A DNA stretch of 64,000 nt from Bradyrhizobium sp. Ash2021 (GTDB taxonomy: Bacteria; Pseudomonadota; Alphaproteobacteria; Rhizobiales; Xanthobacteraceae). The stretch is taken from positions 930,001 through 994,000 of the forward strand of contig NZ_CP100604.1 in NCBI RefSeq assembly GCF_031202265.1. Reading direction: 5' to 3'. The position numbers and the translations under genes are program-made. Positions 3,986 through 55,959 of this stretch are shown here, in pieces (the first letter of the stretch is position 1; each line of letters begins with the position of its first letter). The notes under the pieces were generated by a model that was not told where the DNA came from, did not search any database, and saw nothing but the letters and a program-made list of their open reading frames with translations.

Positions 3986-4007
3986 TTCTAAATTGGTTTT
4001 TAATTGA
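3986..4007 (+). promoter_or_regulatory. CTRAA box A, upstream of first RND operon
   Basis: The element reads TTCTAAA-N5-TTTTAATTGA in the plus direction and matches the shared 22-bp box (CTRAA-N5-WTTTARTKG) at both half-sites. It lies in the 467-bp gap 3836-4302, which otherwise shows nothing recognisable. The next plus-strand gene is the RND transporter at 4303, about 295 bp away. The -10 candidate 20 bp on (CATTGT) is weak. Confidence 0.6.
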
Positions 4008-4302
4008 GAACGTGTCGGTCTCCGACCATTGTTAGAGCGGCATCTGGCCCCTGTTCTGTTGCCGGAAGTTTTCGGTGGGGCGACCCTCCAGAGAAAATAC
4101 CTGGGAAACTCTCAAGGCGTGGTCGTGGAAAAGTTCGCGCACGCAACGGCTGACTATGTCGGGTGGTAAAGATGTTCTGTTCTCACGCTCCTTTGTCCGC
4201 AAACGCATCCGTCCCGATTGACGGCCATGACGGAATGAAAATGTCTCGTAGCCGACTCCCGTCGTAGGGCCTCTTTTGCGGGCTGCGCTGCAAGGATAAA
4301 TC

Positions 4303-7300
4303 ATGGGCATTGTTCGTTTTGCGCTGAGGTTTCCGCATACTTTCTATGTGCTGGCAGCTCTGATCCTGTTTCTCGGTGTCGCCGCCATCCGATCGATGCC
4401 GACCGATATTTTTCCGGAAATCCGCATTCCCGTGGTGACTGTCATATGGCAGTACACCGGCCTCACCACGCCGGAAATGGAACAGCGCGTCAGCACCTAC
4501 AGCCAATATTCCATCAGCGCCAACGTCAACGGCATCAAAAACATGGAAGCGCAGACCCTCAATGGTCTGTCGATCCAGAAGATCTACTTCCAGCCGGACG
4601 TCAATCTCGACCTCGCTATCGCGCAAATCGTGTCTGCGACCAATGCCATCCGCGCCCTGATGCCGCCCGGCATCCAGCCGCCAATCGTCGTGCAGTTCAA
4701 TGCGTCCAGCGTTCCGGTTCTGCAGCTCAGTCTCAATTCGGACAGCCTGAACGAGCAGCAACTCTACGATTTCGGCATCTATCGCGTTCGTCAGCAATTG
4801 GCCCCGGTTCCCGGCGTCACCCTGCCGACGCCGGCGGGCGGCAAATATCGCCAGATCATGGTCGATATCGACCCGGACAAGCTGCTTTCCCGGGGACTGA
4901 CGCCGCTCGACATCGTCAATGCGGTCAATACGCAAAACCTCACGCTGCCGTCGGGAACGGCGAAGATCGGCGACACCCAATATACGGTGCGAACCAACGC
5001 CACGCCGGCGTCGATCAACGACCTCAACATGATACCGGTCAAGTTCGCCAACGGCGCCACCATTTTATTGAAGGACGTGGCGCAGGTCCGCGACGGGGCG
5101 CTGGTGCAGCAGAACATCGTGCGCGAGGATGGCCGCCGCTCGGTTCTGCTTAGCGTGATCAAGAACGGCAATGCGTCGACGCTGGCGGTCGTCAACGGCG
5201 TGAAGAACGCGCTGCAGGCGATCCGCTCCTCCGCACCGGCCGGACTCAAGGTCAACGAGCTGTTCGACCAGTCGATCTTCGTTACAAACTCGGTCACCGG
5301 CGTGTTGCGTGAAGGCGCCATCGCGGCGGGCCTCACCGCGCTGATGATCCTTGTCTTCCTTGGTTCGTGGCGATCGACGCTGGTCGTGATGATCTCAATT
5401 CCGCTGGCGATCCTGTCGTCGCTCGTGGTGCTGTATTTTCTGGGCGAAACGTTGAACACCATGACCCTCGGCGGCCTTGCGCTGGCGGTCGGCATCCTGG
5501 TCGACGATTCGACCGTGACCATCGAGAATACCCACCGGCTGTGGACCGAAGAGGGCATGCCGCTCTCTGAGGCGACGCTGCATGGCGCCGCCGAAATCGC
5601 GGTGCCGACGCTGGTTTCGACGCTTGCCATCAGCTGCGTGTTCACCTCGGTGGTGTTCCTCGACGGACCAGCCAAGTACCTGTTCACGCCGCTGGGACTT
5701 GCCGTCGTATTTGCGATGCTGGCTTCTTACGGATTGTCGCGGACGCTAACGCCGATCACGATCGGCCTGCTGCTCAAGGGCGAACGTCATCACGCAGAGG
5801 ATGGAGCCCCGAGGGGCTTCTTCTCGCGGATGACCGCCGCATTCGAGCGCGGGTTCGAGCACCTGCGTAATGGATACGCGAAATTGCTGGCAACGCTGCT
5901 TCGGCGGAGGGCTATCGTTCCGGTCGTCGTCGTCCTGATGCTCAGTCTCGGCACGGTGATGCTGTTATTCGTTGGCCGGGACTTTTTCCCGCTCATCGAC
6001 GGCGGCCAGATCCAGCTCCACGTTCGTGCTCCCGCCGGCACCCGTATCGAAAGCACCGAAGCGATTTTTCAGGCGGTTGAGGACAAGATTCGCGAGGTCA
6101 TTCCGGAAAAGGACCGCTCCCTGATCGTCGACAATATTGGACTGCCGGCGCGAGCCTTCAATCTGGCGTTCGCCGACGGCTCAACGATCGGGATCAACGA
6201 CGGCGTCATCCAGGTAGCGCTCAAGGAGGGCCACAAACCAACCGCCGATTACGTCAAGAAATTGCGTCAGGTGCTGCCCGCCGCATTCCCGGAGGACGTA
6301 TTCTATTTCCAGGCGGCCGATATCGTAACGCAGATTCTGAACTTCGGACTGCCGGCGCAGATAGACGTCCGGACGGTGGGCTACGACAAGAACAACCTTT
6401 CGGTTGCAAGGGAGCTCCGTCAACGCCTCGCCGCAATTCCAGGCATCGTCGACGCGCATCTGCAGCAGGAAGTCGACGCGCCGGCGTTCTACGCCCAGAT
6501 CGACCGGACGCGCGCTGCGCAGCTTGGCCTCAATGCCAGCACCGTGGCGACCAACATCAATGTCAGCCTGAGCTCGTCGGAGCAGGTTTCGCCTAACTTC
6601 TGGACCGATCCGACCTCGGGGATTCCGTATTATCTGGCTGTGCAGACGCCGGAGTACAAAGTCAACTCGCTCAATGCGCTCGCGAACACGCCGGTTTCCA
6701 CTTCGTTGGCGGTGAGTGGGCAAACGGTCCCTGGCATGCTGAGCAATGTCGCGACGTTCAAGCGGGACAAGGTCGCCACCAATTCCAACCAGACCAACAT
6801 TCAGCCGGTTTTCGACGTCTATGCCAGCGTGCAGGGCCGCGATCTCGGCAGTGTTGCAGCCGACATCAACAAGGTGACGACTGAGCTGCAGAAGGAACTG
6901 AAGCCCGGCAATTCAATTCAGGTAATCGGCCAGATCCAGAGCATGAACGACTCGTTCCGGAATCTGGGTATCGGGCTGCTGTTCGCCGCGGTCTTCGTCT
7001 ATCTGCTGATGGTTGTGAACTATCAGACCTTCGGCGATCCGTTCGTGGTGATCCTGGCCCTGCCGGCGACACTCTGCGGCATCGTCACGATGCTGTTCAT
7101 CACCGGTACCACGCTGAACGTGCCGTCGCTTATGGGAGCGATCATGGCAGTCGGCGTCGCCTCAGCGAACTCGATCCTGCTCGTGACCTTCGCGCGCGAG
7201 CAGCAGCTGAAAGGGCACTCCGCCTTTGAGGCCGCTCTGAGTGCCGGCCACACCCGAATCCGCCCCGTGCTGATGACCGCCGCCGCGATGATCGTCGGCA

Positions 7301-7479
7301 TGATCCCGATGGCGATCGGTGGCGCCGGCGAGGAACAGAACGCTGCGCTCGCGCGCGCCGTCATCGGCGGCCTCTTGTTCGCGACACCGACCACGTTGCT
7401 GATCGTGCCTTACCTGTTCGCCATGCTGCGCAAGGGCAACGACGGAAAGCCTCACCATGGCGTATTCGAGGAAGCTTAG
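4303..7479 (+). CDS. RND efflux transporter permease, HAE/AcrB-like
   Basis: This 1058-residue inner-membrane proton/substrate antiporter shows the two-fold RND layout: TM1 near residues 13-33, a large periplasmic loop, TM2-6 at about 335-490, TM7 near 545, a second periplasmic loop and TM8-12 from about 885. The Asp pair of TM4 that relays protons is present (Asp401-Asp402 in GILVDD). The TM10 Lys of AcrB (GLSAKN) is replaced: the aligned segment is GVASAN, with Ala955. The start has an AAGGA site 6 nt upstream. The adaptor gene follows after 2 bp and an exported Ser/Thr-rich protein after that; no TolC-type gene is present. Box A lies upstream. The substrate is unknown. Confidence 0.9.
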   Translation: MGIVRFALRFPHTFYVLAALILFLGVAAIRSMPTDIFPEIRIPVVTVIWQYTGLTTPEMEQRVSTYSQYSISANVNGIKNMEAQTLNGLSIQKIYFQPDVNLDLAIAQIVSATNAIRALMPPGIQPPIVVQFNASSVPVLQLSLNSDSLNEQQLYDFGIYRVRQQLAPVPGVTLPTPAGGKYRQIMVDIDPDKLLSRGLTPLDIVNAVNTQNLTLPSGTAKIGDTQYTVRTNATPASINDLNMIPVKFANGATILLKDVAQVRDGALVQQNIVREDGRRSVLLSVIKNGNASTLAVVNGVKNALQAIRSSAPAGLKVNELFDQSIFVTNSVTGVLREGAIAAGLTALMILVFLGSWRSTLVVMISIPLAILSSLVVLYFLGETLNTMTLGGLALAVGILVDDSTVTIENTHRLWTEEGMPLSEATLHGAAEIAVPTLVSTLAISCVFTSVVFLDGPAKYLFTPLGLAVVFAMLASYGLSRTLTPITIGLLLKGERHHAEDGAPRGFFSRMTAAFERGFEHLRNGYAKLLATLLRRRAIVPVVVVLMLSLGTVMLLFVGRDFFPLIDGGQIQLHVRAPAGTRIESTEAIFQAVEDKIREVIPEKDRSLIVDNIGLPARAFNLAFADGSTIGINDGVIQVALKEGHKPTADYVKKLRQVLPAAFPEDVFYFQAADIVTQILNFGLPAQIDVRTVGYDKNNLSVARELRQRLAAIPGIVDAHLQQEVDAPAFYAQIDRTRAAQLGLNASTVATNINVSLSSSEQVSPNFWTDPTSGIPYYLAVQTPEYKVNSLNALANTPVSTSLAVSGQTVPGMLSNVATFKRDKVATNSNQTNIQPVFDVYASVQGRDLGSVAADINKVTTELQKELKPGNSIQVIGQIQSMNDSFRNLGIGLLFAAVFVYLLMVVNYQTFGDPFVVILALPATLCGIVTMLFITGTTLNVPSLMGAIMAVGVASANSILLVTFAREQQLKGHSAFEAALSAGHTRIRPVLMTAAAMIVGMIPMAIGGAGEEQNAALARAVIGGLLFATPTTLLIVPYLFAMLRKGNDGKPHHGVFEEA

Positions 7480-7481
7480 GA

Positions 7482-8750
7482 ATGACCGAGACTCGTGTGC
7501 GGCCGAAAACTGAAGTGCCGAAGGACCGGCCTGATCCGGAAACCGATCGTGTTGTTACGTTGCCGAACGCTGCGCCCAAGCGGCGAGGTTACGGAGGCGC
7601 GCTATTCGGGGCAAGCGCGCTGCTGCTGCTCGCAGGCGGCCTTGCGGTAGGAGGTTGGCGCCACTACCAGGCCGAGTTCGACGTCGCGGCTACCGCGCAA
7701 CAGAGCCGTACCCTGGTTCCCGACGTTCGCGTGGGTACGATTCGCGCCAGCGATAGTAAAATTACCGTCACCTTGCCGGCGACGACGACCGCATTCGAAG
7801 CGGCGAATATTTTTGCGCGCACCAACGGCTACATCGAAAAACGCTACGTCGACATCGGCGATCGGGTCAAGGCCGGAGCCCTGTTGGCAGAGATTACCGC
7901 CCCTGAGCTCGACCACCAGATTACGCAGGCCCAGGCGACGCTGGCCCAGAACCAGGCCACGTTGCAGCAAACACAGGCAAGTCGTGAGCTCGCCGAAGTC
8001 ACCAACGGGCGCGATAGCAAGCTCGTCAAGCAGGGATGGCTCACGCTTCAGCAAGGCGACAACGATCGCCTGACCCTGCAGGCGCAACAGGCAGCGGTCG
8101 GCGTAGCTCAGTCGAATATCGCCGCCCAGGAGGCGCAGATTCGAATCCTCGAGCAGGAGAAGGCCTACCAGCGCGTCGTGGCGCCATTCGACGGCGTGAT
8201 CACACAGCGCAACATCGACAATGGCAGCCTGGTGACGTCCGGATCGACCTTCATGTTCACGCTGATGCACCCTGATGTGATCCGTACCCAGGTGTTCGTC
8301 CCCCAGGATGAGGCCTTTGGGCTTGGGCCCGGCGTCGATGCAGTGGTTCGTGTCCCGGAAATTCCGGACCGGAGTTTTCCCGGCAAGGTCACGCGGATCG
8401 CGAGCGCGTTGCAGCCCGGGAGCCGGACGCTGCTGACCGAGATCGACGTCCCCAATCCGGACGGTGCGCTCAGCCCCGGGATCTATTGCACGGTCGAGCT
8501 GCTTATTCCGCGCAAGACACCATCGATGACGATACCGGCCGATGCGGTCGTATTCGATCAGAACGGCCTGCATGTCGCGGTCGTCAAGGACGGCACCGCC
8601 CATCTGCAAAAGATCACGATCGCGCGCGACTTCGGCACGGAGGTCGAAGTGCACGACGGCGTCAAGCCGGGCGATCAGGTCATCCTCAATCCGATGGTGA
8701 ATCTGGCGGAAGGCAGCAAGGTCGCGGCGCGCAAGGCGCAGACAAGCTAG
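7482..8750 (+). CDS. RND periplasmic adaptor subunit (membrane fusion protein)
   Basis: The 422-residue adaptor is anchored by one N-terminal membrane segment (about residues 40-58). It then shows the MFP order: a first lipoyl half (YIEKRYVDIGDRVKAGALLAEI), a long Gln/Ala-rich coiled hairpin (about 145-220), a second lipoyl half (VVAPFDGVITQRNIDNGSLV), a beta-barrel and a membrane-proximal domain. The hairpin should contact an outer-membrane channel encoded elsewhere. It is co-transcribed with the RND permease (ATG 2 bp after its stop codon). Confidence 0.9.
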   Translation: MTETRVRPKTEVPKDRPDPETDRVVTLPNAAPKRRGYGGALFGASALLLLAGGLAVGGWRHYQAEFDVAATAQQSRTLVPDVRVGTIRASDSKITVTLPATTTAFEAANIFARTNGYIEKRYVDIGDRVKAGALLAEITAPELDHQITQAQATLAQNQATLQQTQASRELAEVTNGRDSKLVKQGWLTLQQGDNDRLTLQAQQAAVGVAQSNIAAQEAQIRILEQEKAYQRVVAPFDGVITQRNIDNGSLVTSGSTFMFTLMHPDVIRTQVFVPQDEAFGLGPGVDAVVRVPEIPDRSFPGKVTRIASALQPGSRTLLTEIDVPNPDGALSPGIYCTVELLIPRKTPSMTIPADAVVFDQNGLHVAVVKDGTAHLQKITIARDFGTEVEVHDGVKPGDQVILNPMVNLAEGSKVAARKAQTS

Positions 8751-9891: not shown

Positions 9892-9913
9892 TTATAAAAT
9901 GCTATTTAATGGT
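9892..9913 (+). promoter_or_regulatory. CTRAA box N, upstream of OmpR-type two-component genes
   Basis: TTATAAA-N5-ATTTAATGGT matches the box consensus at 17 of 22 positions against the copy at 55781. A TATTTT hexamer starts 20 bp after ATGG (9933-9938). The element lies in the 361-bp gap 9813-10174. The next plus-strand start is the response regulator at 10175, so the leader would be long. The rest of the gap is GC-rich and shows nothing else. Confidence 0.55.
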
Positions 9914-10174: not shown

Positions 10175-10852
10175 ATGACAAAATTGTTGCTGATCGAGGA
10201 TGACAGCGAGACGGCTGAGGAAATCACAGCCGAACTGGCCGACCGCGGTTTTGAAATCGAGTGGTCGGCCAACGGTATAGAAGGCCTCGACAAGGCACGA
10301 TCTTCTCGGCCGGACGCCATGATCGTCGATCGGCTGCTGCCCGGAATGGACGGCCTTACGGTCATCGAAGCGCTCCGGAAGGACCAGGTGCGCACGCCGG
10401 TACTGGTGCTGAGTGCGCTCGGCGCGGTGGATGACCGCGTGCGCGGATTGCGGATGGGCGGCGACGACTATCTCACCAAACCGTTCGCGATCGTCGAGCT
10501 CGTCGCCAGAGTGGAGGCGTTGCTGCGCAGACCCGCGGAATCGCGCGACACGACGTTGCGGGTAGGACCGCTGGAACTGGATCTGATCGAGCGCACCGCC
10601 AAACGCGGCGACCGGGTGATCGATCTTTTGCCGCGTGAGTTTCGCTTGCTCGAATATATGATGCAACGTAGCGACCAGCTGCTGACGCGAGCTATGCTTT
10701 TGGAGGAGGTCTGGAACTACAAATTCGTTCCGGCAACGAACCTGGTGGACGTGCATATGGGGCGGCTGCGTCACAAGGTGGACGGACCGGAAGAAGTGCC
10801 GATGATCCACAATGTTCGCGGTGCCGGCTTTATCCTTCGCACCGGACCATAG
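10175..10852 (+). CDS. OmpR/PhoB family response regulator
   Basis: This is a 226-residue receiver plus winged-helix regulator. The receiver has the acidic pair IEDD, phosphoacceptor Asp52 (MIVDRLLPG) and the conserved Lys of LTKPF. The C-terminal DNA-binding domain (about 125-222) contains LLPREFRLLEYMMQR and VDVHMGRLRHKVD. The start is set at MTKLLLIEDD because the upstream extension is not receiver-like. A histidine kinase gene follows after 85 bp. Its DNA-binding domain is closely similar to that of the receiver-less protein at 17353-18195. Location after the pump operon suggests, but does not prove, pump control. Confidence 0.92.
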   Translation: MTKLLLIEDDSETAEEITAELADRGFEIEWSANGIEGLDKARSSRPDAMIVDRLLPGMDGLTVIEALRKDQVRTPVLVLSALGAVDDRVRGLRMGGDDYLTKPFAIVELVARVEALLRRPAESRDTTLRVGPLELDLIERTAKRGDRVIDLLPREFRLLEYMMQRSDQLLTRAMLLEEVWNYKFVPATNLVDVHMGRLRHKVDGPEEVPMIHNVRGAGFILRTGP

Positions 10853-10937: not shown

Positions 10938-12302
10938 ATGCTTCAGGCGCAAATCATACGTTCAATTACCTTCCGTCGAGCGCTGGCGGTGACCGGCGCA
11001 TTCGCGGTTTTCGTCATCGCGCTGTTCGGATTCATCTACTGGCAGACCGATCAATACCTGATCGCGCGATCTGACCGAATGATCGCGAGGCAACTCAACG
11101 TTATCTCGGCGTTGCCCGGTGAACGACGGTTGGATGCAATCGACGAGCATCTAAGGCAGGATTCCCGTGGCGTTCAATATGCCGGGTTGTTCGCCGCGGA
11201 TGGCCGCCGGATAACGGGCAATCTGGAACAGTTCCCACCAGGGCTCCAGATGAATGATTCGGTCCAGAGCCTCTCGGTCGTCCGAACGCTGCCGACCGGT
11301 CGAGAGACGCGCGCGATCCGCGCGATCGCCCGCCGAATGCCGAATGGCGATGCGCTGGCGATCGGACGAGAGGTCGACGAAACCAGGGAAATTTCCCATG
11401 TTGTCGGTCAGGCACTTGCGCTGGGTCTGTTGCCGGCGTTTTGCCTGTGCCTGCTGGCTGGTGCGTGGTTGAGCATGCGGGCTCAGGAGCGCGTCGAAGA
11501 CGTAAATCAGCATGTTCAGCGTATCATCGCCGGCGATCTGCGTGAGCGGCTTCCGCACCGTGACGTCGACGATCCGTTTTCGAGGCTCGCGTCCATCGTC
11601 AATGGCATGCTTGATGAAATGGAAACGATGATCCACGCGCTCGCCGGGGTAGGCAACGACATCGCCCATGATTTACGCACGCCGCTGACGCGGGCGCGGC
11701 TCGCTCTCGAGCGCGGCCGCACCAACGCAACGACGATGGAACAGCTCCAGGCGGTTGCAGACAAGGCGGTCGCGAACATCGATCAGTCGCTGACGATCAT
11801 CACGGCTCTGTTGCGCCTGGCCGCAATCGAGAACAGCCGGCGGTCGGCGGCCTTCGGTAATGTCCCATTGCACGAAATGCTGCGCGAGGTCTGCGATATC
11901 TACGAACCGATCGCCGAAAACAAGAATATCAGCTTGCGGGTCGATGTGGGACACCGGCTTTACGTGCGCGGTGACCGGGATCTCTTGCTCGAAGCGGTCG
12001 CCAATCTCGTCGACAATGCCATCAAGTTTACGCCCGAAGGCGGCAAGGTGGATATCGAACTGTTGCGTGGCGATGGCGAAACCATCGTGCGCGTGACCGA
12101 TACTGGCCCCGGCATCAGTGAGCAGGAGCGCGAGGCGGTGCTGCGGCGTTTCTACCGCTCCGACAAGATCCGAAGTACGCCGGGCGTGGGCCTTGGCCTG
12201 AATCTGGTGGCCGCGATCGTGAAGTTGCACGGCTTTCGTCTCGTGATCCACTCCGGCCAGGGCGGTCGGTTGGAGATCATTTGTCCCGACAGGCATGAGT
12301 GA
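10938..12302 (+). CDS. HAMP-containing sensor histidine kinase
   Basis: The 454-residue membrane kinase has TM1 at about residues 14-34, a periplasmic sensor of about 120 residues, TM2 near 155-175, a HAMP linker, a HisKA domain with His244 (DIAHDLRTPL) and an HATPase domain (NLVDNAIKF, DTGPGIS, GVGLGLNLV). The start MLQAQIIRS is chosen for its GGCGAG site; an ATG seven codons upstream is possible. It is the partner of the response regulator immediately upstream. The short periplasmic domain gives no clue to the signal. Confidence 0.9.
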   Translation: MLQAQIIRSITFRRALAVTGAFAVFVIALFGFIYWQTDQYLIARSDRMIARQLNVISALPGERRLDAIDEHLRQDSRGVQYAGLFAADGRRITGNLEQFPPGLQMNDSVQSLSVVRTLPTGRETRAIRAIARRMPNGDALAIGREVDETREISHVVGQALALGLLPAFCLCLLAGAWLSMRAQERVEDVNQHVQRIIAGDLRERLPHRDVDDPFSRLASIVNGMLDEMETMIHALAGVGNDIAHDLRTPLTRARLALERGRTNATTMEQLQAVADKAVANIDQSLTIITALLRLAAIENSRRSAAFGNVPLHEMLREVCDIYEPIAENKNISLRVDVGHRLYVRGDRDLLLEAVANLVDNAIKFTPEGGKVDIELLRGDGETIVRVTDTGPGISEQEREAVLRRFYRSDKIRSTPGVGLGLNLVAAIVKLHGFRLVIHSGQGGRLEIICPDRHE

Positions 12303-12847: not shown

Positions 12848-12894
12848 GCTTAAAAACGAATTTAGTGGGACGATCGAGATTGTCTCTTATCTAC
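12848..12894 (+). promoter_or_regulatory. CTRAA box B with -10 element
   Basis: The box at 12848-12869 reads GCTTAAA-N5-ATTTAGTGGG. A -10-like TATCTA begins 20 bp after GTGG (12889-12894), and the ATG of the small exported protein at 12934 lies 65 bp beyond the box. This is one of the copies with the standard spacing. Confidence 0.65.
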
Positions 12895-12933: not shown

Positions 12934-13170
12934 ATGAAACTCACCACAATCGCATTGGCTACCGCGTTCGCCCTCTCGGGGACGGCCGCCTTTGCAAACA
13001 CGCATCATCATAAAGCGGTCGCGAGGGCTGATCGCGATGCCGTCGGTATGGTCCATCTGCATTCGAACTACGGCAACCCGAACGGTAATCCGGACGGTCC
13101 GACGACATTGAGCGGCACCGGAGACTCTTCGTTCGGCGGCTCGTCGCCCGGTACCAGCGGCTACAACTAA
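12934..13170 (+). CDS. Small exported His/Gly/Ser-rich protein
   Basis: This 78-residue protein has a clear signal peptide (MKLTTIALATAFALSGTAAFA) followed by an HHH motif and a Gly/Asn/Pro/Ser-rich tail (NYGNPNGNPDGP, GDSSFGGSSPGTSGYN). The ATG at 12934 has a GAAGGA site 6 nt upstream; longer frames start inside the promoter. No domain is recognised. It is one of several tiny exported proteins in this window controlled by a CTRAA box (12848). Confidence 0.75.
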   Translation: MKLTTIALATAFALSGTAAFANTHHHKAVARADRDAVGMVHLHSNYGNPNGNPDGPTTLSGTGDSSFGGSSPGTSGYN

Positions 13171-27545: not shown

Positions 27546-27731
27546 CACGGCCGCTATCTCCTGCTTGTAGCTATCAGGCAGATAGGCAGCGGGGTTGTTC
27601 GACACCATTAAATCTTTTGAGCGAGATCAGTGCGCGAACGTCCGCACCAAAGTGCTTTCTCAAACAGAAGTTACTGGCGCAACTGCAACTGGATTCCGAT
27701 GTACCTCACATCATCCTACAAGGAGGCCAAG

Positions 27732-29130: not shown

Positions 29131-29176
29131 AGACTATGCGGATGGATTGTTGGGACCATTAAATTTGGGTTCAGAT
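29131..29176 (-). promoter_or_regulatory. CTRAA box C with -10 element
   Basis: On the minus strand the box (29176-29155) reads ATCTGAA-N5-ATTTAATGGT and is followed 19 bp later by TAGTCT (29136-29131). The AraC start codon is at 29075. Right beside it, 29176-29197 on the plus strand (CTAAA-N5-TTTTATTCG after AG) is a weaker copy pointing at the divergent oxidoreductase gene. Confidence 0.65.
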
Positions 29177-29381
29177 AGCTAAATTCGATTTTATTCGCGG
29201 CAACAGGCGCGAGCCTCCGGACGGAACATGCACCTTGACGAGTGCCTGGTTGGGCCATCTTCAGGAATCCAAGCAAGAAGACGTAAGGCGCGGCAAGCTG
29301 AGACAAGCGCCGGCCCCGTTAGTCACCAGTTGTTGGCGTGTGTTCGTCGCACGATGCGGCTGGACCCGGTTAGGAACCTCT

Positions 29382-31569: not shown

Positions 31570-31615
31570 ACCTAACGGCGAATTTAATGGTCCGCGGTTG
31601 TCCCGTTGTTACCTT
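31570..31615 (+). promoter_or_regulatory. CTRAA box D with -10 element
   Basis: The box at 31570-31591 reads ACCTAAC-N5-ATTTAATGGT; TACCTT (31610-31615) begins 20 bp after ATGG. The first start codon in the same direction is the mini-ORF at 31738 and then the truncated cydB at 31806. So a functional-looking promoter now drives a decayed oxidase gene. Confidence 0.6.
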
Positions 31616-33792: not shown

Positions 33793-33838
33793 AAGATAGT
33801 TTCACGATTATCGTGAGCCATTAAATTAGCGTTCAGAA
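33793..33838 (-). promoter_or_regulatory. CTRAA box E with -10 element
   Basis: Minus-strand box (33838-33817) TTCTGAA-N5-ATTTAATGGC, followed 19 bp later by TATCTT (33798-33793). The predicted transcript starts about 30 nt before the oxalate decarboxylase ATG at 33753. This is one of the closest matches to consensus and spacing. Confidence 0.7.
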
Positions 33839-38374: not shown

Positions 38375-38779
38375 TTACGGCCAGGTATCGTCCGGAAGAT
38401 TGACCACGATCGGCGTCGCGGTGCTGCGCACGACTACCCATCGAAACGGCCGCTGTTTCGACGGATTGATTTCCATGTGCGGCAGGAAGGCGGGGACATG
38501 AATGAAATCGCCGGCCTTTGCGCGCGCGACCGATTCGCCTCGTTCGCCCCAGCGGATTTCGCAGATGCCGGAGAGGACGTAGGCGATCGTCTCCTGTTCC
38601 CCGTGATGATGAATTCCCGTCCGCGATCCCGGCGCCACCTCGAACAAACCGCCCCAGATGGCCGACTCGATGCCGAGCGCCGGTGCGATGGCGGCGCGAC
38701 GCTCGGAGCCCGGCGTCTGCGCCGTTCCCCGATCGAATTCAGCCGGGCTGACGATGTGGATAGCGGCAGAGGTAGCCAT
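38375..38779 (-). CDS. Single-domain cupin protein
   Basis: The 134-residue cupin has the metal-site motif GIHHHGEQETIAYVLSG and a second-half GDFIHVPAFLPHMEIN. The N-terminal segment SAIWGGLFEVAPGS is typical of small cupins that bind or dismutate small acids. The ATG at 38779 follows GGGAC; a TTG five codons upstream is less likely. It is the first gene after CTRAA box F (59 bp upstream) and 97 bp before paoA, so it probably shares the aldehyde-oxidase transcript. Confidence 0.8.
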   Translation of the reverse strand: MATSAAIHIVSPAEFDRGTAQTPGSERRAAIAPALGIESAIWGGLFEVAPGSRTGIHHHGEQETIAYVLSGICEIRWGERGESVARAKAGDFIHVPAFLPHMEINPSKQRPFRWVVVRSTATPIVVNLPDDTWP

Positions 38780-38812: not shown

Positions 38813-38859
38813 AAGTTAAGCAGCAGCCGATGAGAGAGCCACTAAATTGGAGTTTAGTG
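38813..38859 (-). promoter_or_regulatory. CTRAA box F (perfect dyad) with -10 element
   Basis: This is the most symmetric copy: CACTAAA-N6-TTTAGTG on the minus strand (38859-38840, then GC), with a TAACTT hexamer (38818-38813) 20 bp on. The cupin start is at 38779. It should drive the cupin-paoABC-cytochrome operon. The rest of the 38780-38994 gap is featureless. Confidence 0.7.
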
Positions 38860-44989: not shown

Positions 44990-45190
44990 TGGCACTATCC
45001 TTTGGAAGCCCGCGTCGCTGCAGCGGGAGCGACCACCCGGAGCGAGTTCTTGTGACATCGGTCAATCCTGGCCCGTTCGGTGTCAGCGTTGGCACGTCGA
45101 GGAATGGCAGATCTGCTTGTTATGCTATGCCCGGTTTTAAACGGCTTCGGACAGTCTCACGGTTGAAAGTGGCCGGTCCCTCGCAACTCC

Positions 45191-45212
45191 TCAAGTAAAT
45201 ACGAGTTTATTC
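45191..45212 (-). promoter_or_regulatory. Weak CTRAA-like box O, upstream of second RND operon
   Basis: On the minus strand GAATAAA-N5-ATTTACTTGA matches 13-14 of 22 positions of the best box. A CACTTT hexamer lies 20 bp further. It is 200 bp upstream of STR3. The match is weaker than the others, so its membership is uncertain. Confidence 0.35.
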
Positions 45213-45332: not shown

Positions 45333-45354
45333 ACCTAAAACATTGTTTAATTGA
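45333..45354 (+). promoter_or_regulatory. CTRAA box G, upstream of the FdhF/YdeP-like gene
   Basis: ACCTAAA-N5-GTTTAATTGA in the plus direction, 104 bp before the start at 45458. The centre (ACATTG) is nearly that of box I at 50043. A -10 candidate at the standard distance (GATGTC) is poor. The 468-bp gap 44990-45457 contains only this box, box O and leader sequence. Confidence 0.6.
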
Positions 45355-47974: not shown

Positions 47975-48907
47975 TTAGGTGCCCAAAGCCTCCTGCATCG
48001 CCGCCGGCGCATGTACGGTGAGGTTCCTGGCCGCTTTTCGTACTTTCTCGAACGCGCGCGCCTCGATTTGCCGGATCCGTTCGCGCGATACGTTGAATTG
48101 TGCCGCAAGCTCTTCGAGCGTCAGTGGTTGGTCGACCAGATGTCGCGCCTCGAAGATGCGACGTTCGCGGTCGTCCAGTACCTCGATCGCGGCGACCAGT
48201 GCCTTATGCTGACGTTCTTTTTCGTCCTGTTCGACAACGATGGCTTCCGGCGAGGGGGACTGATCAACGAGATAGTCCTGCCATTCGCCGGTTTCACCGT
48301 CCTCATGAAGCGGCGCATTGATGGACTTGTCGCCGCCAAGGCGCCGATTCATGTCGACGACATCGCGCTCCGCGACGTCGAGGCTCGTTGCAATCAGAGA
48401 GACCTGATCGGGGTGCAGGTCGCCACTTTCGAATGCGGCGATCTTGCCTTTTGCCGAGCGCAGTTTGAAAAATAGTTTCTTCTGGCTCATGGTCGTGCCG
48501 ATTTTCACAAGTGACCACGAACGCAGGATGTAATCCTGGATGGAAGCCCTGATCCACCAGATCGCATAGGTGGAGAAGCGAAAGCCCTTTTCCGGTTCAA
48601 AGCGATTGACTGCCTGCATCAGGCCGACGTTGCCTTCGGAGATGATTTCCGAAACGGGAAGACCGTAGCCGCGGTAGCCCATGGCGACTTTGGCGGCGAG
48701 ACGCAGATGACTTGTGACGAGCTGATTCGCGGCATCACGGTCGCCGTGCTCGCGCCAGCGTTTGGCGAGCCTGTACTCCTGGTCTCTTTCGAGCATCTCG
48801 AAGCGCCGGATGTCGTAGAGATAACCTTTGCCGCGTCCATTTCCGGCAAACGCTGGTGCGAGCCGTGTTCGAGTTGCGAGGCCCGCGAATTGTCCTTCAA
48901 TGCCCAT
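47975..48907 (-). CDS. rpoH: RpoH-type (sigma-32) RNA polymerase sigma factor
   Basis: The 310-residue sigma factor contains region 2 (LVTSHLRLAAKVAMGYRGYG, GFRFSTYAIWWIRASIQDYI), the RpoH-box signature QKKLFFKLR, and region 4 (LTLEELAAQFNVSRERIRQI). It directs polymerase to heat-shock-type promoters. Bradyrhizobium-group genomes carry several rpoH copies under different controls; this looks like an accessory one. MGIEGQF (48907) with GGAG 8 nt upstream is preferred over an ATG 12 codons earlier. Two overlapping CTRAA boxes lie upstream, so the factor would relay the box signal to further promoters. Confidence 0.88.
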   Translation of the reverse strand: MGIEGQFAGLATRTRLAPAFAGNGRGKGYLYDIRRFEMLERDQEYRLAKRWREHGDRDAANQLVTSHLRLAAKVAMGYRGYGLPVSEIISEGNVGLMQAVNRFEPEKGFRFSTYAIWWIRASIQDYILRSWSLVKIGTTMSQKKLFFKLRSAKGKIAAFESGDLHPDQVSLIATSLDVAERDVVDMNRRLGGDKSINAPLHEDGETGEWQDYLVDQSPSPEAIVVEQDEKERQHKALVAAIEVLDDRERRIFEARHLVDQPLTLEELAAQFNVSRERIRQIEARAFEKVRKAARNLTVHAPAAMQEALGT

Positions 48908-48966: not shown

Positions 48967-49032
48967 ATGATAGGCAAAGCGCGCGGGGGAGCCATTAAAA
49001 TGAGATTTAGGACATTAAATTCGAATTCACGT
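48967..49032 (-). promoter_or_regulatory. Tandem CTRAA boxes H1/H2 with -10 element
   Basis: H1 (49012-48991, TCCTAAA-N5-TTTTAATGGC) and H2 (49032-49011, ACGTGAA-N5-ATTTAATGTC) follow each other with a 20-bp period, two helical turns, on the minus strand. TATCAT (48972-48967) lies 19 bp after H1. The sigma-factor start is at 48907. It is the only promoter with two copies. Confidence 0.65.
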
Positions 49033-49311: not shown

Positions 49312-49668
49312 TCAGTAGGTGCAGGTATACGGCCAGGTGCTCGACGTGTAATTCGGGTTATACGGGCAATCGAGGCCGTAGTTGTAGTAGCCGCCGACGA
49401 AATGACGCCGTCCAGCGCCAAAGTGATCGTGGTCCATGTGGGCAATGTGACCGGCGCCAAAGCCACCGACGTGGCCTCCGCCAAGACCTCCGATGTGACC
49501 ACCGCCAAATCCACCCATGTGACCTCCACCAAAACCGCCCATGTGGCCTCCGCCAAAGCCACCCATGTGGCCGCCGCCGCCGCCGCCTCCGCGAGCCTGT
49601 GCACCCGTGGCAACAAGGCTGCCGGCAAGCAGTGCGCTTGCCAAAATCATCATCGCTCGTCCTCGCAT
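49312..49668 (-). CDS. Exported Gly/His-rich repeat protein
   Basis: The 118-residue protein has a signal peptide (MRGRAMMILASALLAGSLVA, cleavage after AQA) followed by six octads of the type GGGH(M/I/V)GGF, an HMDHDHFGAGRRHF cluster and a Tyr/Asn/Cys-rich tail (GLDCPYNP ... WPYTCTY). The His density suggests metal binding in the periplasm; the repeat and Tyr tail also resemble small surface-layer or biofilm proteins. The repeats are 24 bp at DNA level. A frame on the other strand mirrors the repeat. Confidence 0.7.
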   Translation of the reverse strand: MRGRAMMILASALLAGSLVATGAQARGGGGGGGHMGGFGGGHMGGFGGGHMGGFGGGHIGGLGGGHVGGFGAGHIAHMDHDHFGAGRRHFVGGYYNYGLDCPYNPNYTSSTWPYTCTY

Positions 49669-49777
49669 AACATTCTCCATTTCGATGGGCGGACTTTCCG
49701 CCACAGGGCGTTGTCAGACGTTGGCGCGGTTCAGCAAAGTAAACGCCAACGTCGCGATGGACTGGATATGGGAATTG

Positions 49778-49978
49778 CTATTCTTCCCCCCTACTAAATT
49801 CTCTTTCAATCAACCAATGAATGCCCGCCTCACGAGAGCCAGGCAGGCGCGCCCGCGTATTGATCGAGTGTTGCTGCAGGCAGGCCGAGATTTCAGCCCT
49901 CGCAAAAAAAGACGGCGCGCACCCGCCTTGTTGAGGGGGCATGAAGCGCGGCGCGCGCCGTCCAGTCGACAGCCGCAT
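49778..49978 (-). CDS. Candidate small Arg-rich protein under box I
   Basis: A 66-residue frame starts at 49978 with CGAGG 7 nt upstream, exactly 65 bp beyond CTRAA box I, the same distance seen for confirmed genes. The translation (MRLSTGRRAPRFMPPQQGGC ...) has no recognisable domain or signal peptide and its composition is weak for a real protein. It is listed because the promoter geometry points to it; a noncoding transcript is equally possible. Confidence 0.25.
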   Translation of the reverse strand: MRLSTGRRAPRFMPPQQGGCAPSFFARAEISACLQQHSINTRARLPGSREAGIHWLIEREFSRGEE

Positions 49979-50017: not shown

Positions 50018-50064
50018 GATCTACGCTTGCAGTGCTCATCGCGCCATTAAACAATGTTTCAGAA
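50018..50064 (-). promoter_or_regulatory. CTRAA box I with -10 element
   Basis: Minus-strand box (50064-50043) TTCTGAA-N5-GTTTAATGGC, with TAGATC (50023-50018) 19-20 bp on. It reads away from fdhD. The next secure minus-strand gene is the Gly/His-rich protein (start 49668); the candidate frame at 49978 is closer. Confidence 0.6.
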
Positions 50065-50141: not shown

Positions 50142-50163
50142 AGCTAAACCCGTTTTTAGTTGA
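50142..50163 (+). promoter_or_regulatory. CTRAA box J, upstream of fdhD
   Basis: AGCTAAA-N5-TTTTAGTTGA on the plus strand, 80 bp before the fdhD ATG at 50243. Together with box I, 80 bp away and opposite, it forms a divergent pair. The -10 at the standard distance is poor; TACTAC lies about 6 bp further. Confidence 0.6.
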
Positions 50164-50242: not shown

Positions 50243-51052
50243 ATGATGGAACCTGCCCGAGTCGTTCCTCGCCGGATTTGGCGAGATGGCAGTCCGAGCG
50301 TCGGCAATCGTTCGGTTCCGGAAGAGACCGCGGTGGCGCTGACATATAATGGCGGGACCTATGCCGTCATGATGACGACGCCGCAGGATTTGGAGGATTT
50401 TGCGGTCGGCTTCAACCTCAGCGAAGGCGTCATCAGCGCTTCCAAGGATGTCGATTCGCTAAACATCATGTCTCTCGAAGATGGTATCGAACTGCGGATG
50501 TGGCTCAGCAAACCGAGGGCCGATCGCCTGCAGGAACGACGGCGGCACATCGCGGGGCCGACAGGGTGCGGATTGTGCGGCATAGAATCAGTCGCGGAAG
50601 CAATGCGTCCCGCGGCTGTTGTCGGGCGCGGCCCGCAATTTTCGCCCGAACAGGTCATGGCGGCCATGCAGGGCCTGTCATCGCGTCAAAAGCTCAACAT
50701 CGAGACGCGCGCAGTACATGCAGCTGCGTTCTGGAATGCCACGAGTGGTATTGTTGCGTTGCGCGAGGACGTTGGCCGCCATAATGCGCTCGACAAGCTG
50801 TCGGGTGCGCTGGCGCGTGCGTCTATTGTGGCGAGCGAGGGGATCATTCTTCTCACCAGCCGGGTGTCAGTGGAGATGGTGCAGAAGAGCGCTGCGATAG
50901 GTGCGCCCGTGATGGTGTCGGTGTCGGCACCAACCGCGCTGGCTGTTCGCATGGCGGACGCAGCGGGTATTACACTCGCCGCCATCGCACGCGCGGACGG
51001 ATTCGAAGTGTTTACGCATCCTGGTCGAATTTCAGATGAGCCATTGCGGTAA
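50243..51052 (+). CDS. fdhD: Formate dehydrogenase accessory sulfurtransferase
   Basis: FdhD carries sulfur from a desulfurase to the bis-MGD cofactor of formate dehydrogenases. The 269-residue protein has the two-Cys loop TGCGLCGIES (Cys109, Cys112), the N-terminal EETAVALTYNGGTYAVMM strand pair, TPQDLEDFAVGF and the C-terminal REDVGRHNALDKLSGAL and LTSRVSVEMVQKSA. GGAG 6 nt upstream favours ATG 50243; ATG 50231 is also in frame. It supports the FdhF/YdeP-like enzyme at 45458. Confidence 0.93.
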   Translation: MMEPARVVPRRIWRDGSPSVGNRSVPEETAVALTYNGGTYAVMMTTPQDLEDFAVGFNLSEGVISASKDVDSLNIMSLEDGIELRMWLSKPRADRLQERRRHIAGPTGCGLCGIESVAEAMRPAAVVGRGPQFSPEQVMAAMQGLSSRQKLNIETRAVHAAAFWNATSGIVALREDVGRHNALDKLSGALARASIVASEGIILLTSRVSVEMVQKSAAIGAPVMVSVSAPTALAVRMADAAGITLAAIARADGFEVFTHPGRISDEPLR

Positions 51053-53579: not shown

Positions 53580-54944
53580 CTAAGTTGCCGGCTTTGGTGA
53601 AGAACCCGGTTGAAGCGACGACACCCGCCACACGGTGTTTCCGACATCGTCGGCGATGAGTAGTCCGCCGGTCCGGTCGACTGCCAAACCGACCGGCCTT
53701 CCGTGCGCGTGATTGTTCGCATCGAGGAAGCCCGTGACGACATCCTGTGGCGGGCCGCTAGGTCGTCCACCGCTGAAGGGCACGAAGACCACTTTGTAGC
53801 CGTTCAGAGGCGTTCGATTCCAGCTTCCGTGTTCGCCGACGAACGCACCGCCGCGGTAGTTTGCCGGAAGATCGGTGCCTGTGTACATGGCGACACCCAA
53901 CGGCGCCACGTGGGAGCTTAGCGCGTAGTCCGGCTTGATCGCTCTGGCCACCAGATCGGGCCGCTGCGGTACGATGCGGGGGTCCAGGTGCTGGCCGTAA
54001 TAGCTATAGGGCCAGCCATAGAAACCTCCGTCCTGCACCGAGGTCAGATAATCCGGAACCAGGTCGGGCCCGATCTCGTCGCGTTCGTTGGCGATGGCCC
54101 AGAGCTTGCCGGTCTCAGGTTCCCACTGCAGCCCGGTGGGATTACGGACTCCGCTGGCGAAGATACGATGCGCGCCCGACGCACGGTCGACCTCCCAGAT
54201 TGCAGCTCGTTCGTATTCGGCCCCGATTCCGTTTTCGCCAATGTTGCTGTTCGAGCCGACGCCGACATAGAGCTTGGAGCCGTCTGGACTGGCCAACAGA
54301 GCCTTCGTCCAGTGATGATCGATGGGCCCGCCAGGAAGATCGGTAAGCTTGGTGCCCGGCGCGGTGATGCTGGTTTGCCCGTCCTGGTAGGGATAGCGGA
54401 CGATCGCATCGGTGTTGGCGACGTAGAGATCGTGACCAACCAGGGCAACTCCAAAGGGCGAGTTGAGGTGGTCCAGAAACACGGTTCGCGTTTCAAAGCG
54501 GCCGTCACCATTCGCATCGCGCAGCAGCGTGATGCGATTGGCGTCCTTCGCCTTGGCGCCGGCGAACGACTGTACCCAGCCGGTGATGATGTCTTTTGGC
54601 CGGTAAACCGGCGCCTTCGGGCCGTTGCTCTCGACCACCAGCACGTCTCCATTGGGGAGGACGTAGAGGGACCGGGGGTGCTGAAGGCCGGTCGCCAATG
54701 CATGGACCTGCAATCCCTGCGGCACCGTGGGAGCCTCATCCTTTCCCCATCCGACCACCTTTGCGATTCGCATCGGCGGCATCAAATATTGCTGCACCTC
54801 GGGCAGCACGGGATTGGCGCCGATCTGCACTTTCGGATCGCCGGCATGATCGTCACAGCCGGCGAGTCCCAACCCGGCGACAGCGACGAGGATAGCGGCA
54901 ACACGCGGTAGCTTCGTCGAGCCTGCAATTCTGAGGGCGTGCAT
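53580..54944 (-). CDS. PQQ-dependent sugar dehydrogenase (GSDH/sorbosone type), lipoprotein
   Basis: The 454-residue soluble-type quinoprotein beta-propeller has a lipobox near the N-terminus (AGLGLAGCDD, Cys modified and anchored). Propeller landmarks include GLQHPRSLYVLPNGDVLVVE, NSPFGVALVGHDLYVAN, SNIGENGIGAEYERAAIWEVD, SGVRNPTGLQWEPETG and GEHGSWNRTPLNGYKVVFVP. It probably oxidises an aldose or a similar polyol in the periplasm. ATG 54944 with GGAGG 5 nt upstream starts 1 bp after the upstream stop codon; third gene behind CTRAA box K. Confidence 0.87.
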   Translation of the reverse strand: MHALRIAGSTKLPRVAAILVAVAGLGLAGCDDHAGDPKVQIGANPVLPEVQQYLMPPMRIAKVVGWGKDEAPTVPQGLQVHALATGLQHPRSLYVLPNGDVLVVESNGPKAPVYRPKDIITGWVQSFAGAKAKDANRITLLRDANGDGRFETRTVFLDHLNSPFGVALVGHDLYVANTDAIVRYPYQDGQTSITAPGTKLTDLPGGPIDHHWTKALLASPDGSKLYVGVGSNSNIGENGIGAEYERAAIWEVDRASGAHRIFASGVRNPTGLQWEPETGKLWAIANERDEIGPDLVPDYLTSVQDGGFYGWPYSYYGQHLDPRIVPQRPDLVARAIKPDYALSSHVAPLGVAMYTGTDLPANYRGGAFVGEHGSWNRTPLNGYKVVFVPFSGGRPSGPPQDVVTGFLDANNHAHGRPVGLAVDRTGGLLIADDVGNTVWRVSSLQPGSSPKPAT

Positions 54945-54945
54945 A

Positions 54946-55416
54946 TTATCCTCCAATACGATGGCGATTTGCCAGGGCCGCGGAAACTGCAGCCGTCAGC
55001 AAGAGAACGACGACGACCAGTCCGGAAAGCATCAGGCCGGTCGGTACCACTGCGGTGTAACCGTCGCGGCTGTGAACGAAGGCATTTATCAGCGCGAGCA
55101 GGACAGCGAGCGCGTAACCGACGGCGCGGGGCCAAGCCGGCCTGTCGATTCGTCTGCGGGCCGCCAGGTCGATTGCGTAAGCGACGGTGGCGAGGCCCGC
55201 CATGACCAGACCGGCGACGATCAGCCAGATGGAGAACCTCTCCCACAACACATCAGGCATCTGCCAGTAGACAAGATCGGTGACGAGCGCGCCGGTGAAA
55301 TAGGCGGCGGAAAACGACACCAGGATTTTGTGTATCGGTCGTCCACGACGCTTCCGGGTTGGCCTCAAATTGGCGTCGCCCATGAACGTCGCTTCCGTTA
55401 TCGTAGCGTGCTTCAT
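54946..55416 (-). CDS. DUF2231 family membrane protein
   Basis: The 156-residue protein has four transmembrane helices and the DUF2231 opening GRPIHKILVSFSAAYFTGAL, followed by DLVYWQ. DUF2231 proteins often accompany dehydrogenases or cytochromes and may serve as membrane haem or quinone partners. It sits between a small exported protein and the PQQ dehydrogenase in a tight unit (44 bp and 1 bp spacing). Confidence 0.85.
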   Translation of the reverse strand: MKHATITEATFMGDANLRPTRKRRGRPIHKILVSFSAAYFTGALVTDLVYWQMPDVLWERFSIWLIVAGLVMAGLATVAYAIDLAARRRIDRPAWPRAVGYALAVLLALINAFVHSRDGYTAVVPTGLMLSGLVVVVLLLTAAVSAALANRHRIGG

Positions 55417-55459: not shown

Positions 55460-55711
55460 TTACTTGAACTGCGGAATTGTCGGGACGGTTATGTGCGGCT
55501 GCGGCAGCGGCGCCAATTTGGAAGCGTTGCCGATGCCGCTCGGATCGACGTTCACATTGTTCAGCCCACCAGCGTTTGCAGGCCCCGCGGGAATTCCGTT
55601 GATGGGCACATTTCCTGAGCCTGCTCCACCCGCCATCCTTGCGTAGGAAGCGGCAGGGGCCGCCAGGAGAACGAGGAATGCGAGAGCGATTTTTGCAGAT
55701 GTGTTGGACAT
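55460..55711 (-). CDS. Small exported Gly/Asn/Pro-rich protein
   Basis: The 83-residue protein has signal peptide MSNTSAKIALAFLVLLAAPA (cleavage after SYA) and a Gly/Asn-rich mature chain (GGAGSGNVPINGIPAGP, GGLNNVNVDPSGIGNASKL) with a Pro-rich end. No Cys. It is the first gene after CTRAA box K (70 bp) and heads the PQQ-dehydrogenase operon. Function unknown. Confidence 0.7.
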   Translation of the reverse strand: MSNTSAKIALAFLVLLAAPAASYARMAGGAGSGNVPINGIPAGPANAGGLNNVNVDPSGIGNASKLAPLPQPHITVPTIPQFK

Positions 55712-55755
55712 GACGAGCCTCCATTGTTCAACGAGAGTGTTGGACGCGTAAGCCC

Positions 55756-55802
55756 GATGTAGGTCCGTCGATTCGACGACGCCATTAAATTGAAGTTTAG
55801 AA
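55756..55802 (-). promoter_or_regulatory. CTRAA box K with -10 element
   Basis: Minus-strand box (55802-55781) TTCTAAA-N5-ATTTAATGGC, the copy nearest to the consensus, with TACATC (55761-55756) 20 bp on and the small exported protein ATG at 55711. It should drive 55711 to 53580. Confidence 0.7.
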
Positions 55803-55913
55803 CAGCCAAGCAGAAAGCCAGTAGGCGGACCGACGCGCGTTCTCTTCTGCGCTTCCTCACCGACGCGCGCCTCGAAATGCGGAGCAAACTATCGAAGAAA
55901 AATCACTTTCGCG

Positions 55914-55959
55914 TTCTGAATTTCAATTTAGTGGGATGAGTGGAGTTTTGACTTACCTC
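55914..55959 (+). promoter_or_regulatory. CTRAA box L with -10 element
   Basis: Plus-strand box (55914-55935) TTCTGAA-N5-ATTTAGTGGG, TACCTC (55954-55959) 20 bp after GTGG, start of the BA14K-like gene at 56039. With box K it makes a divergent pair 111 bp apart. Confidence 0.7.

What the first reader, a model, noticed from the sequence alone, without database searches (positions are those of the whole stretch)
3986..55959. A 22-bp box repeated at about 14 promoters defines an unlisted local regulon
Seen directly: copies of CTRAA-N5-WTTTARTKG at 3986, 9892, 12848, 29155 (minus), 31570, 33817 (minus), 38838 (minus), 45333, 48991 and 49011 (minus), 50043 (minus), 50142, 55781 (minus) and 55914, with a weak one at 45191. 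All are intergenic, and each points at a downstream start codon, mostly 59-104 bp away. The genes served are an RND pump, a two-component system, an AraC regulator, oxalate decarboxylase, cupin-paoABC, a formate-dehydrogenase-like gene, an RpoH-like sigma factor, fdhD, a PQQ dehydrogenase unit and small exported proteins. I know of no published box of this sequence. Inference: one regulator coordinates export, periplasmic oxidation and envelope proteins.
Basis: partly seen in the sequence, partly recalled or inferred. Interest (0 to 1): 0.9.

Follow-up and report, generated by a model that had tools for sequence, protein, structure and literature searches.

The report
Self-controlled two-component regulon in Bradyrhizobium
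A short DNA box in front of about fifteen stress genes appears to be the landing site of one two-component signalling system, which seems also to control its own genes, an extra heat-shock-type sigma factor, and a set of pumps and acid-consuming enzymes.

Summary
In detail: 19 sites with at most 2 mismatches in the window, 1.15 expected. 'One regulator' is supported, and the likely reader is the OmpR-family response regulator at 10175-10852 (kinase 10938-12302). In 117 genomes of the genus, 158 of 159 exact boxes lie in the 54 that carry its orthologue. The regulator's own upstream region has a box in 45 of 49 distinct orthologous copies and in 0 of 22 weaker relatives. In held-out genomes, 38 of 52 orthologues of box genes have the box against 4 of 92 orthologues of other block genes. 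The box keeps a fixed distance to a -10 element, centred near -42 as for a class II activator; 17 of 178 distinct sites have a second box exactly 20 bp upstream. AraC, LuxR-type and RpoH rivals are missing from many genomes that have boxes. Targets (oxalate decarboxylase, YdeP, FdhD, pumps, RpoH) suggest an EvgAS-like acid or envelope-stress response; the signal is inferred. There are no binding or expression data.

The parts
10175..10852 (+). OmpR/PhoB-family response regulator, inferred reader of the box
   Evidence: Response_reg + Trans_reg_C; co-occurrence; footprint upstream of orthologues
10938..12302 (+). cognate sensor histidine kinase; in the model two long helices (10-57, 148-197) enclose a five-strand domain, taken as periplasmic (inference)
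   Evidence: HisKA and HATPase_c above cut-off, HAMP just below it; orthologues near the regulator in relatives; model
9894..9912 (+). box of the two-component operon (autoregulation)
3988..4006 (+). box before RND permease 4303-7479 and adaptor 7482-8750; 296 bp from the start, a weak case
   Evidence: orthologues in G019 and G028 have a box 96-97 bp away, G249 and G189 have none
12850..12868 (+). box before small exported protein 12934-13170
27659..27677 (+). weaker box before small exported protein 27732-27992 (not in the finding)
   Evidence: score 18.6; higher scores at the orthologues in G015, G019, G053; 1 of 3 held-out orthologues reaches 10
29156..29174 (-). box before AraC-family regulator gene 28161-29090
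29179..29197 (-). possible distal box of the araC promoter, 20 bp upstream of the proximal one when aligned on the minus strand; weak here (score 3.3)
   Evidence: (listed as a plus-strand match); stronger partners at the same spacing in G280, G051, G091
31572..31590 (+). box before a cytochrome-bd subunit II fragment (31689-32018)
   Evidence: relatives G019 and G280 have a box before a CydD-like protein
33818..33836 (-). box before bicupin oxalate decarboxylase 32506-33753
   Evidence: 5 of 5 held-out orthologues
38839..38857 (-). box before cupin gene 38375-38779, upstream of paoABC-like genes 34417-38277
   Evidence: 4 of 4 held-out orthologues
45192..45210 (-). weak box (score 7.4); target unclear, possibly the second RND operon 38995-43289
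   Evidence: similar weak sites 966-1125 bp before the adaptor gene in G015, G019, G028, G031
45335..45353 (+). box (score 14.8) before YdeP/FdhF-like oxidoreductase 45458-47794
   Evidence: score >=10 in 2 of 3 held-out orthologues
48992..49010 (-). proximal box before RpoH-like sigma factor 47975-48907
49012..49030 (-). distal box of the rpoH promoter, exactly 20 bp upstream
   Evidence: also in G015, G019, G028, G031, G249, G280, G051, G091
49791..49809 (-). box (score 14.5) before Gly/His-rich exported protein 49312-49704(-) (not in the finding)
   Evidence: similar arrangement in G019
50044..50062 (-). box with no called gene close by; may also serve 49312-49704(-)
   Evidence: a like-spelled site in G249
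50144..50162 (+). box (score 14.5) before fdhD 50243-51052
   Evidence: score >=10 in 3 of 3 held-out orthologues
55782..55800 (-). box before small exported protein 55460-55711, then DUF2231 and GSDH-like genes 53580-55416
55916..55934 (+). box before BA14K-type exported protein 56039-56356

Best explanation
The box is the operator of the OmpR-family response regulator encoded at 10175-10852. When its membrane kinase (10938-12302) senses a cell-surface stress, the phosphorylated regulator binds the box as a dimer. The box is centred near -42 and its 3' end takes the place of a -35 element, so the regulator recruits RNA polymerase as a class II activator. It activates its own operon, an RpoH-like sigma factor, an AraC regulator, efflux pumps, oxalate decarboxylase, YdeP, FdhD and small exported proteins. 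Some promoters (above all rpoH, and araC in relatives) carry two boxes 20 bp apart, two helical turns, so that two dimers can bind the same face. Shown by sequence: the box, its fixed -10, the link to the regulator gene, conservation and tandem spacing. Inferred: binding, activation rather than repression, dimer geometry, and the signal. Most likely signal: acid or carboxylic-acid stress at the envelope (about 0.4, conditional on the regulator and not part of the confidence below).
For: Co-occurrence: 158 of 159 boxes in 117 genomes lie in the 54 with the regulator orthologue (72% identity or more; other relatives about 50%), while the reversed control splits 9 to 4. Repeat outside the genus: 8 of 11 genomes with the regulator have a box (19 boxes), 2 of 220 without it (2 boxes); reversed control 1 and 12. 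Autoregulation: a matrix trained on 73 sites away from the regulator scores 10 or more upstream of 45 of 49 distinct orthologous copies (a 46th at 9.96; 27 at 20 or more) and of 0 of 22 weaker relatives, best 6.0. G005, G106 and G088 have only two exact boxes each, all within 0.9 kb upstream of the regulator, one facing it. At least 11 of the 21 genomes with one to three boxes have one within 1.2 kb of the regulator. Five of nine Acetobacteraceae orthologues (60-66%) have a box-like site upstream, four of them at 19.8-27.3. Held-out promoters: 38 of 52 against 4 of 92. Fixed -10 in held-out sites. Tandem boxes at exactly -20: 17 of 178 distinct sites, other spacings at most 2.
Against: No binding or expression data. 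25 of 54 genomes with the orthologue lack an exact box; 16 of these were fetched, and 15 have a diverged version scoring 10 or more (the 16th 9.96) before the regulator, so specificity drifts. The second regulator copies in G000, G071 and G083 have no box upstream. 14 of 52 held-out orthologues scored below 10, including the RND permease (0 of 2) and cytochrome bd (0 of 4). Four of nine Acetobacteraceae loci score below 10, and the -10 there is not in register. Score 10 is not very strict: 6 of 63 distant loci (L148-L210) reach 10.7-11.9. The recognition helix differs from 2 of 2 boxless paralogues aligned, but boxless Pseudomonas and Burkholderia relatives share it. The LuxR-type regulator and the block RpoH also go with the box-rich genomes. 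Dyad or 11-bp direct repeat: not resolved.
Confidence: 0.87

Rival explanations
1. The box is read by the AraC-family regulator at 28161-29090 (asymmetric site, box before its own gene).
For: Box before araC in the window, G015, G019, G028, G031, G051, G091, G249 and G280, with a tandem partner in three of them; asymmetric flanks would suit a two-HTH protein.
Against: Orthologue (80% or more) in 7 of 117 genomes; missing from G053 (28 boxes) and G025 (13 boxes), whose best relatives are 41% and 53%, and not found at that level in any of the 21 genomes with one to three boxes.
Confidence: 0.02
2. The box is read by the LuxR-type response regulator at 23626-24285 with the PAS kinase at 20975-23629.
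For: Close orthologues (78% or more) in 10 of 117 genomes, all with boxes, among them all nine with six or more.
Against: No box scoring 10 before 3 of 3 held-out orthologues. Of the 21 genomes with one to three boxes only G022 has it at that level.
Confidence: 0.03
3. The box plus -10 is a promoter of the RpoH-like sigma factor at 47975-48907 rather than an activator site.
For: Fixed spacing between box and -10; this RpoH type (70% or more) is in all nine genomes with six or more boxes.
Against: At 70% or more it is in only 2 of the 21 genomes with one to three boxes (G032, G116) and also in G105, which has no box. Tandem boxes lie 20 bp apart, too close for two promoters of this layout. The element does not resemble the sigma-32 promoter (recalled).
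Confidence: 0.03
4. The regulator-box pair is right but the signal is not acid: copper, peroxide, an antimicrobial or an aldehyde, as in the related CusRS, HprRS and CopRS systems. (Compatible with the best explanation; concerns the signal only.)
For: Best NCBIfam models are cztR_silR_copR and cztS_silS_copS; several RND/MFS pumps, a ferritin-like protein and molybdoenzymes among targets.
Against: Both scores are below the curated cut-offs (211.9 of 279.2; 190.8 of 292.55). No His or Cys column is conserved in 24 or more of 33 sensor domains (one His column in 19 of 33). Targets include proton-consuming decarboxylases (recalled chemistry) and YdeP.
Confidence: 0.45

Closest known systems
CusRS / HprRS / CopRS two-component systems (OmpR family)
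   Same: Nearest curated families of both proteins. E. coli HprR binds, at lower affinity, near its own genes for autoregulation, and HprR and CusR recognise the same DNA sequence (passages of PMC8249747).
   Different: Below the family cut-offs; HprR and CusR are called single-target regulators in PMC8249747, whereas the six richest genomes here have 13-28 exact boxes; no strongly conserved His or Cys in the sensor.
EvgAS acid-resistance regulon of E. coli
   Same: EvgA controls ydeP, the emrKY pump and the oxalate genes frc and oxc (passages of PMC4283999). Here the box serves ydeP, pumps, an oxalate decarboxylase and fdhD.
   Different: [quoted passage not shown] here the regulator is OmpR-type with a small sensor domain and a different, cupin-type oxalate enzyme. 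Convergent at most.
Acid-response operon of Rhizobium tropici (RTCIAT899_RS05450/05455)
   Same: A response regulator plus kinase operon needed for growth at low pH and induced more than 2-fold at pH 4.5 (passages of PMC5936775).
   Different: Its sequence was not compared, so whether it is an orthologue is open; no binding box was mentioned in the passages seen.
EcfG/PhyR, ChvI, FixK and other alphaproteobacterial regulons (recalled)
   Same: Stress regulons with promoter boxes in related bacteria.
   Different: Their boxes, as recalled, differ from this one; not tested by any search.

Membership tests
OmpR/PhoB-family response regulator | receiver domain plus Trans_reg_C winged helix | tested here: met
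   Pfam PF00072 and PF00486 above cut-off
OmpR/PhoB-family response regulator | binds tandem or paired half-sites of about 10-11 bp near the promoter | tested here: inconclusive
   Box fits an 11-bp direct repeat or a CTRAA-N6-TTTAR dyad; no binding assay
CopR/CusR/CzcR heavy-metal regulator (TIGR01387) | score above the curated cut-off | tested here: not met
   211.9 bits, cut-off 279.2
CusS/CopS heavy-metal kinase (TIGR01386) | score above the curated cut-off | tested here: not met
   190.8 bits, cut-off 292.55
CusS/CopS heavy-metal kinase | conserved metal-binding His/Met/Cys in the sensor domain | tested here: not met
   in 33 sequences the only such columns at 50% or more are M48 (21) and H71 (19)
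EvgAS | LuxR/NarL-type (GerE) output domain | tested here: not met
   Trans_reg_C, no GerE in the regulator
EvgAS-like acid regulon (by function) | induction by low pH | not testable with these tools
   no expression data
class II activator promoter | site centred near -41.5 at a fixed distance from the -10 | tested here: met
   -10 at one register in 82 aligned sites and in held-out sites; the start site itself is inferred
sigma-32 (RpoH) promoter | sigma-32 type -35 and -10 | not tested
   only visual comparison with a recalled consensus

The most novel reading that the evidence does not exclude
Bradyrhizobium and relatives have independently built an EvgAS-like acid-resistance regulon around an OmpR-type two-component system. 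It couples oxalate decarboxylation (which consumes a proton and makes formate) to YdeP and FdhD, organic-acid efflux and a dedicated RpoH, and it spreads as a gene block whose promoters carry the regulator's own box. That would support the suggestion in PMC4283999 that YdeP removes formate to keep oxalate-based acid resistance running.
Probability: 0.35. Interest if true: 0.78.

Novelty: new member of a known kind. Interest (0 to 1): 0.63.

Why it matters
It assigns an operator, a regulator and a target list to a two-component system from sequence alone, with held-out tests; none of the titles and abstract starts listed by searches describes it. The system appears to control an extra sigma factor and a set of acid, formate and efflux genes in an agriculturally important genus that also lives in acid soils (recalled). 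[quoted passage not shown] The tandem 20-bp arrangement and fixed -10 give a clean promoter model.

Tried and rejected
Rejected: AraC, LuxR-type regulator and RpoH as readers (see rivals). CRP/FNR-type reader, considered because of the 5-N6-5 dyad near -42: no such domain appeared among the window proteins scanned (not every window gene was scanned), and the co-occurrence points to the OmpR-type regulator; not tested further. Dyad or direct repeat: purine choices at positions 2 and 15 look independent (77/40/35/21, and 5 others, of 178), which decides nothing. Foldseek on the kinase model (pTM 0.39) listed kinase cores and full-length kinases, CusS and HprS among them, which says nothing on the signal. 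Larger regulons in acetic acid bacteria: the relaxed pattern gave 12 matches in 16 distant genomes against 10 for the reversed pattern; three of the 12 are the box next to the regulator in Acetobacter. The candidate gene for box 45192 (44108-45058 minus) has no Pfam match. Rfam and tRNA scans explained no box. Papers: I saw passages only, in PMC10454721, PMC8249747, PMC4283999, PMC7046781, PMC5017713 and PMC5936775; all others only as listings with the start of the abstract (one search found none).

The totals for genomes outside the genus, the counts over the 21 genomes with one to three boxes (the places of the G104 box were not listed) and the Acetobacteraceae and distant-locus counts I made by hand from printed rows. 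Searches examined 49 distinct orthologous copies, not all. One search printed 20 tandem rows of 185; one search recounts 17 of 178 after removing copies. One search kept tblastn hits of at least 50% identity over at least 55% of the query, starting within its first 40 residues and at least 150 bases from an edge; others were dropped, and 54946 was counted as a box gene although it is second in its operon. G051 and G091 are near relatives of each other, and the genomes in general are related, so counts are not independent events. My gene caller is home-made and missed at least one real gene (49312-49704 minus).


Full report
OBSERVATION. In the whole genome (9.70 Mb, window at C1:930001-994000) there are 17 exact sites, 8 of them in the window; with up to 1 mismatch 38 against 18 for the reversed pattern. 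Of 18 window sites checked, 17 overlap no called gene. A 22-position weight matrix trained on 73 exact sites (none near the regulator gene) finds 149 sites at score 17 or more in 789 kb of fetched loci, which were chosen for having boxes, and none in the same loci read backwards; 9 of the 149 fall inside called genes.

ANATOMY. Aligning 82 exact sites shows mostly T or C just before the box and a -10 element (C-T-A-n-n-T-T) at positions 37-43 counted from the first C; little else is conserved (0.3 bits or less at nearly all other flanking positions). In 56 held-out sites the -10 score peaks only at offsets 36 and 37 (36% and 14% of sites at 5 or more; 0-2% elsewhere). The 3' end of the box therefore stands where a -35 would be, and if transcription starts about 7 bp after the -10 the box centre is near -42, the position of a class II activator (inference from geometry). 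The box can be read as an imperfect dyad CTRAA-N6-TTTAR or as an 11-bp direct repeat; the data do not decide. Of 178 distinct sites scoring 20 or more, 17 have a second box of score 8 or more exactly 20 bp upstream; of the other spacings from 13 to 45 bp, -19 gives 2, -21 and -14 give 1 each, the rest none. These pairs recur at rpoH promoters, and in relatives at araC promoters; in the 20 rows printed, 14 distal boxes contain TCGAATTTA and 10 contain TRAATTCGAATTTA. In a Rhizobium genome with a 70% orthologue, two such boxes 20 bp apart (aligned by eye) stand before a malic enzyme next to the kinase.

WHO READS IT. In 117 genomes of the genus, exact boxes are absent or rare in most and abundant in nine (28, 18, 17, 15, 14, 13, 8, 6, 6). 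The OmpR-family regulator at 10175-10852 has a clear orthologue (72% or more) in 54 of the 117 and only about 50% relatives or none in the rest. Those 54 genomes hold 158 of 159 boxes; the reversed control splits 9 to 4; 29 of 30 genomes with a box have the orthologue (Fisher p 1.5e-11; the genomes are related, so the p-value overstates). Outside the genus, 8 of 11 genomes with the regulator have a box and 2 of 220 without it; the reversed control gives 1 and 12 matches. The regulator's own upstream region carries the box (score 10 or more) in 45 of 49 distinct orthologous copies, a 46th scoring 9.96, and in 0 of 22 weaker relatives. Three genomes (G005, G106, G088) have exactly two exact boxes; in all three both lie within 0.9 kb upstream of the regulator, one facing it and one facing away, in G005 and G088 towards a small Gly/His-rich exported protein. 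Of nine Acetobacteraceae orthologues (60-66%), five have a box-like site upstream, four of them at 19.8-27.3, but the -10 is not in register, and no larger set was found there. Competing regulators fit worse: see rivals.

TARGETS. In held-out genomes, 38 of 52 orthologues of the box genes have a box (score 10 or more) within 350 bp upstream against 4 of 92 orthologues of the other block genes; at 17 or more 31 against 1. By gene: regulator 8 of 10 (misses G201, G312), oxalate decarboxylase 5 of 5, cupin-paoABC 4 of 4, araC 4 of 4, rpoH 6 of 6 (two of them only 51-67% identical), fdhD 3 of 3, ydeP 2 of 3, exported proteins at 55460, 56039 and 12934 2 of 2, 2 of 2 and 1 of 1, that at 27732 1 of 3, RND permease 0 of 2, cytochrome-bd piece 0 of 4, DUF2231 0 of 3 (second gene of its operon). 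In single relatives a box precedes a CydD-like exporter gene, malonate decarboxylase mdcA (box 259 bp away with a called gene in between), a ferritin-like protein (Dps by my reading), DUF202, MFS and MMPL transporters, an EmrA-type adaptor (534 bp away) and an SBF-like transporter (373 bp away).

FUNCTION. The set resembles the E. coli EvgAS regulon, in which ydeP, emrKY and the oxalate genes frc and oxc are induced together; the authors of PMC4283999 suggest that YdeP could break down formate so that an oxalate cycle keeps consuming protons (passages). Here an oxalate decarboxylase (product formate, recalled), ydeP and fdhD share one box. This points to acid or carboxylic-acid stress, with an added RpoH and efflux for envelope damage. 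It is inference: the nearest curated families are metal or peroxide responders, though the scores are below cut-off and the sensor domain lacks strongly conserved His or Cys. The predicted sensor domain (helix, then five strands) gave no useful structural match. A regulator-kinase operon needed at low pH is reported in Rhizobium tropici (passages of PMC5936775); whether it is related was not tested.

STATUS. Known kind (autoregulated two-component regulon), apparently undescribed member: none of the titles and abstract starts listed by searches describes this system or box; most subscription papers are not held. The genus name Bradyrhizobium is inferred: a same-genus genome has a contig equal in length to a record titled only Alphaproteobacteria bacterium, and the closest named records are Bradyrhizobium.

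Noticed in passing
window 2778-2851 and 59191-59637: A tRNA-Gly and the two-piece tmRNA gene stand on either side of the box-bearing block, most of which has a slightly lower G+C (58-62%) than the window ends (62-63%); possible integration sites of a gene island.
   Followed up: no
G000:C1 636333/638232 and 1257682/1259581 (L001, L002, L011, L012): Two pairs of boxes with identical spelling and identical 1,899-bp spacing, so a segment seems duplicated in the genome.
   Followed up: no
window 31689-32018: Cytochrome-bd subunit II fragment of 109 aa behind a box; in G019 and G280 a box stands before a CydD-like gene instead, so the oxidase module looks decayed here.
   Followed up: partly
L035:4300-5742, L068:3197-4630, L069:6061-7413, L048:12990-14357, L039:3827-5206, L044:8894-10243, L045:2812-4164: Further kinases 53-64% like the window's kinase lie in genomes with boxes, and in G019 and G028 a kinase gene of about 460 codons has a box before it. 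Several sensors may feed one regulator.
   Followed up: partly
G053 (28 boxes) and G025 (13 boxes): Here the boxes are scattered over the whole chromosome instead of clustered, as if the regulon had spread beyond the block.
   Followed up: partly
G000:C1:2541675-2542343: A second copy of the regulator (84%) with no box directly upstream but a near-match at 2539431 before a small protein.
   Followed up: partly
G019 and G028, RpoH-like matches: Three block-type RpoH matches are flagged with one internal stop (G019 two, G028 one); described only.
   Followed up: no
window 24512-25747 and 56645-57934: Two sulfite-dehydrogenase-like molybdoenzymes (SorA-like and SoxC) lie in the block without a box of their own.
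   Followed up: no
L041:8908-9153, L042:9013-9261, L043:8587-8835: An ORF of 81-82 codons is called between the two boxes upstream of the regulator in G005, G106 and G088; not studied.
   Followed up: no
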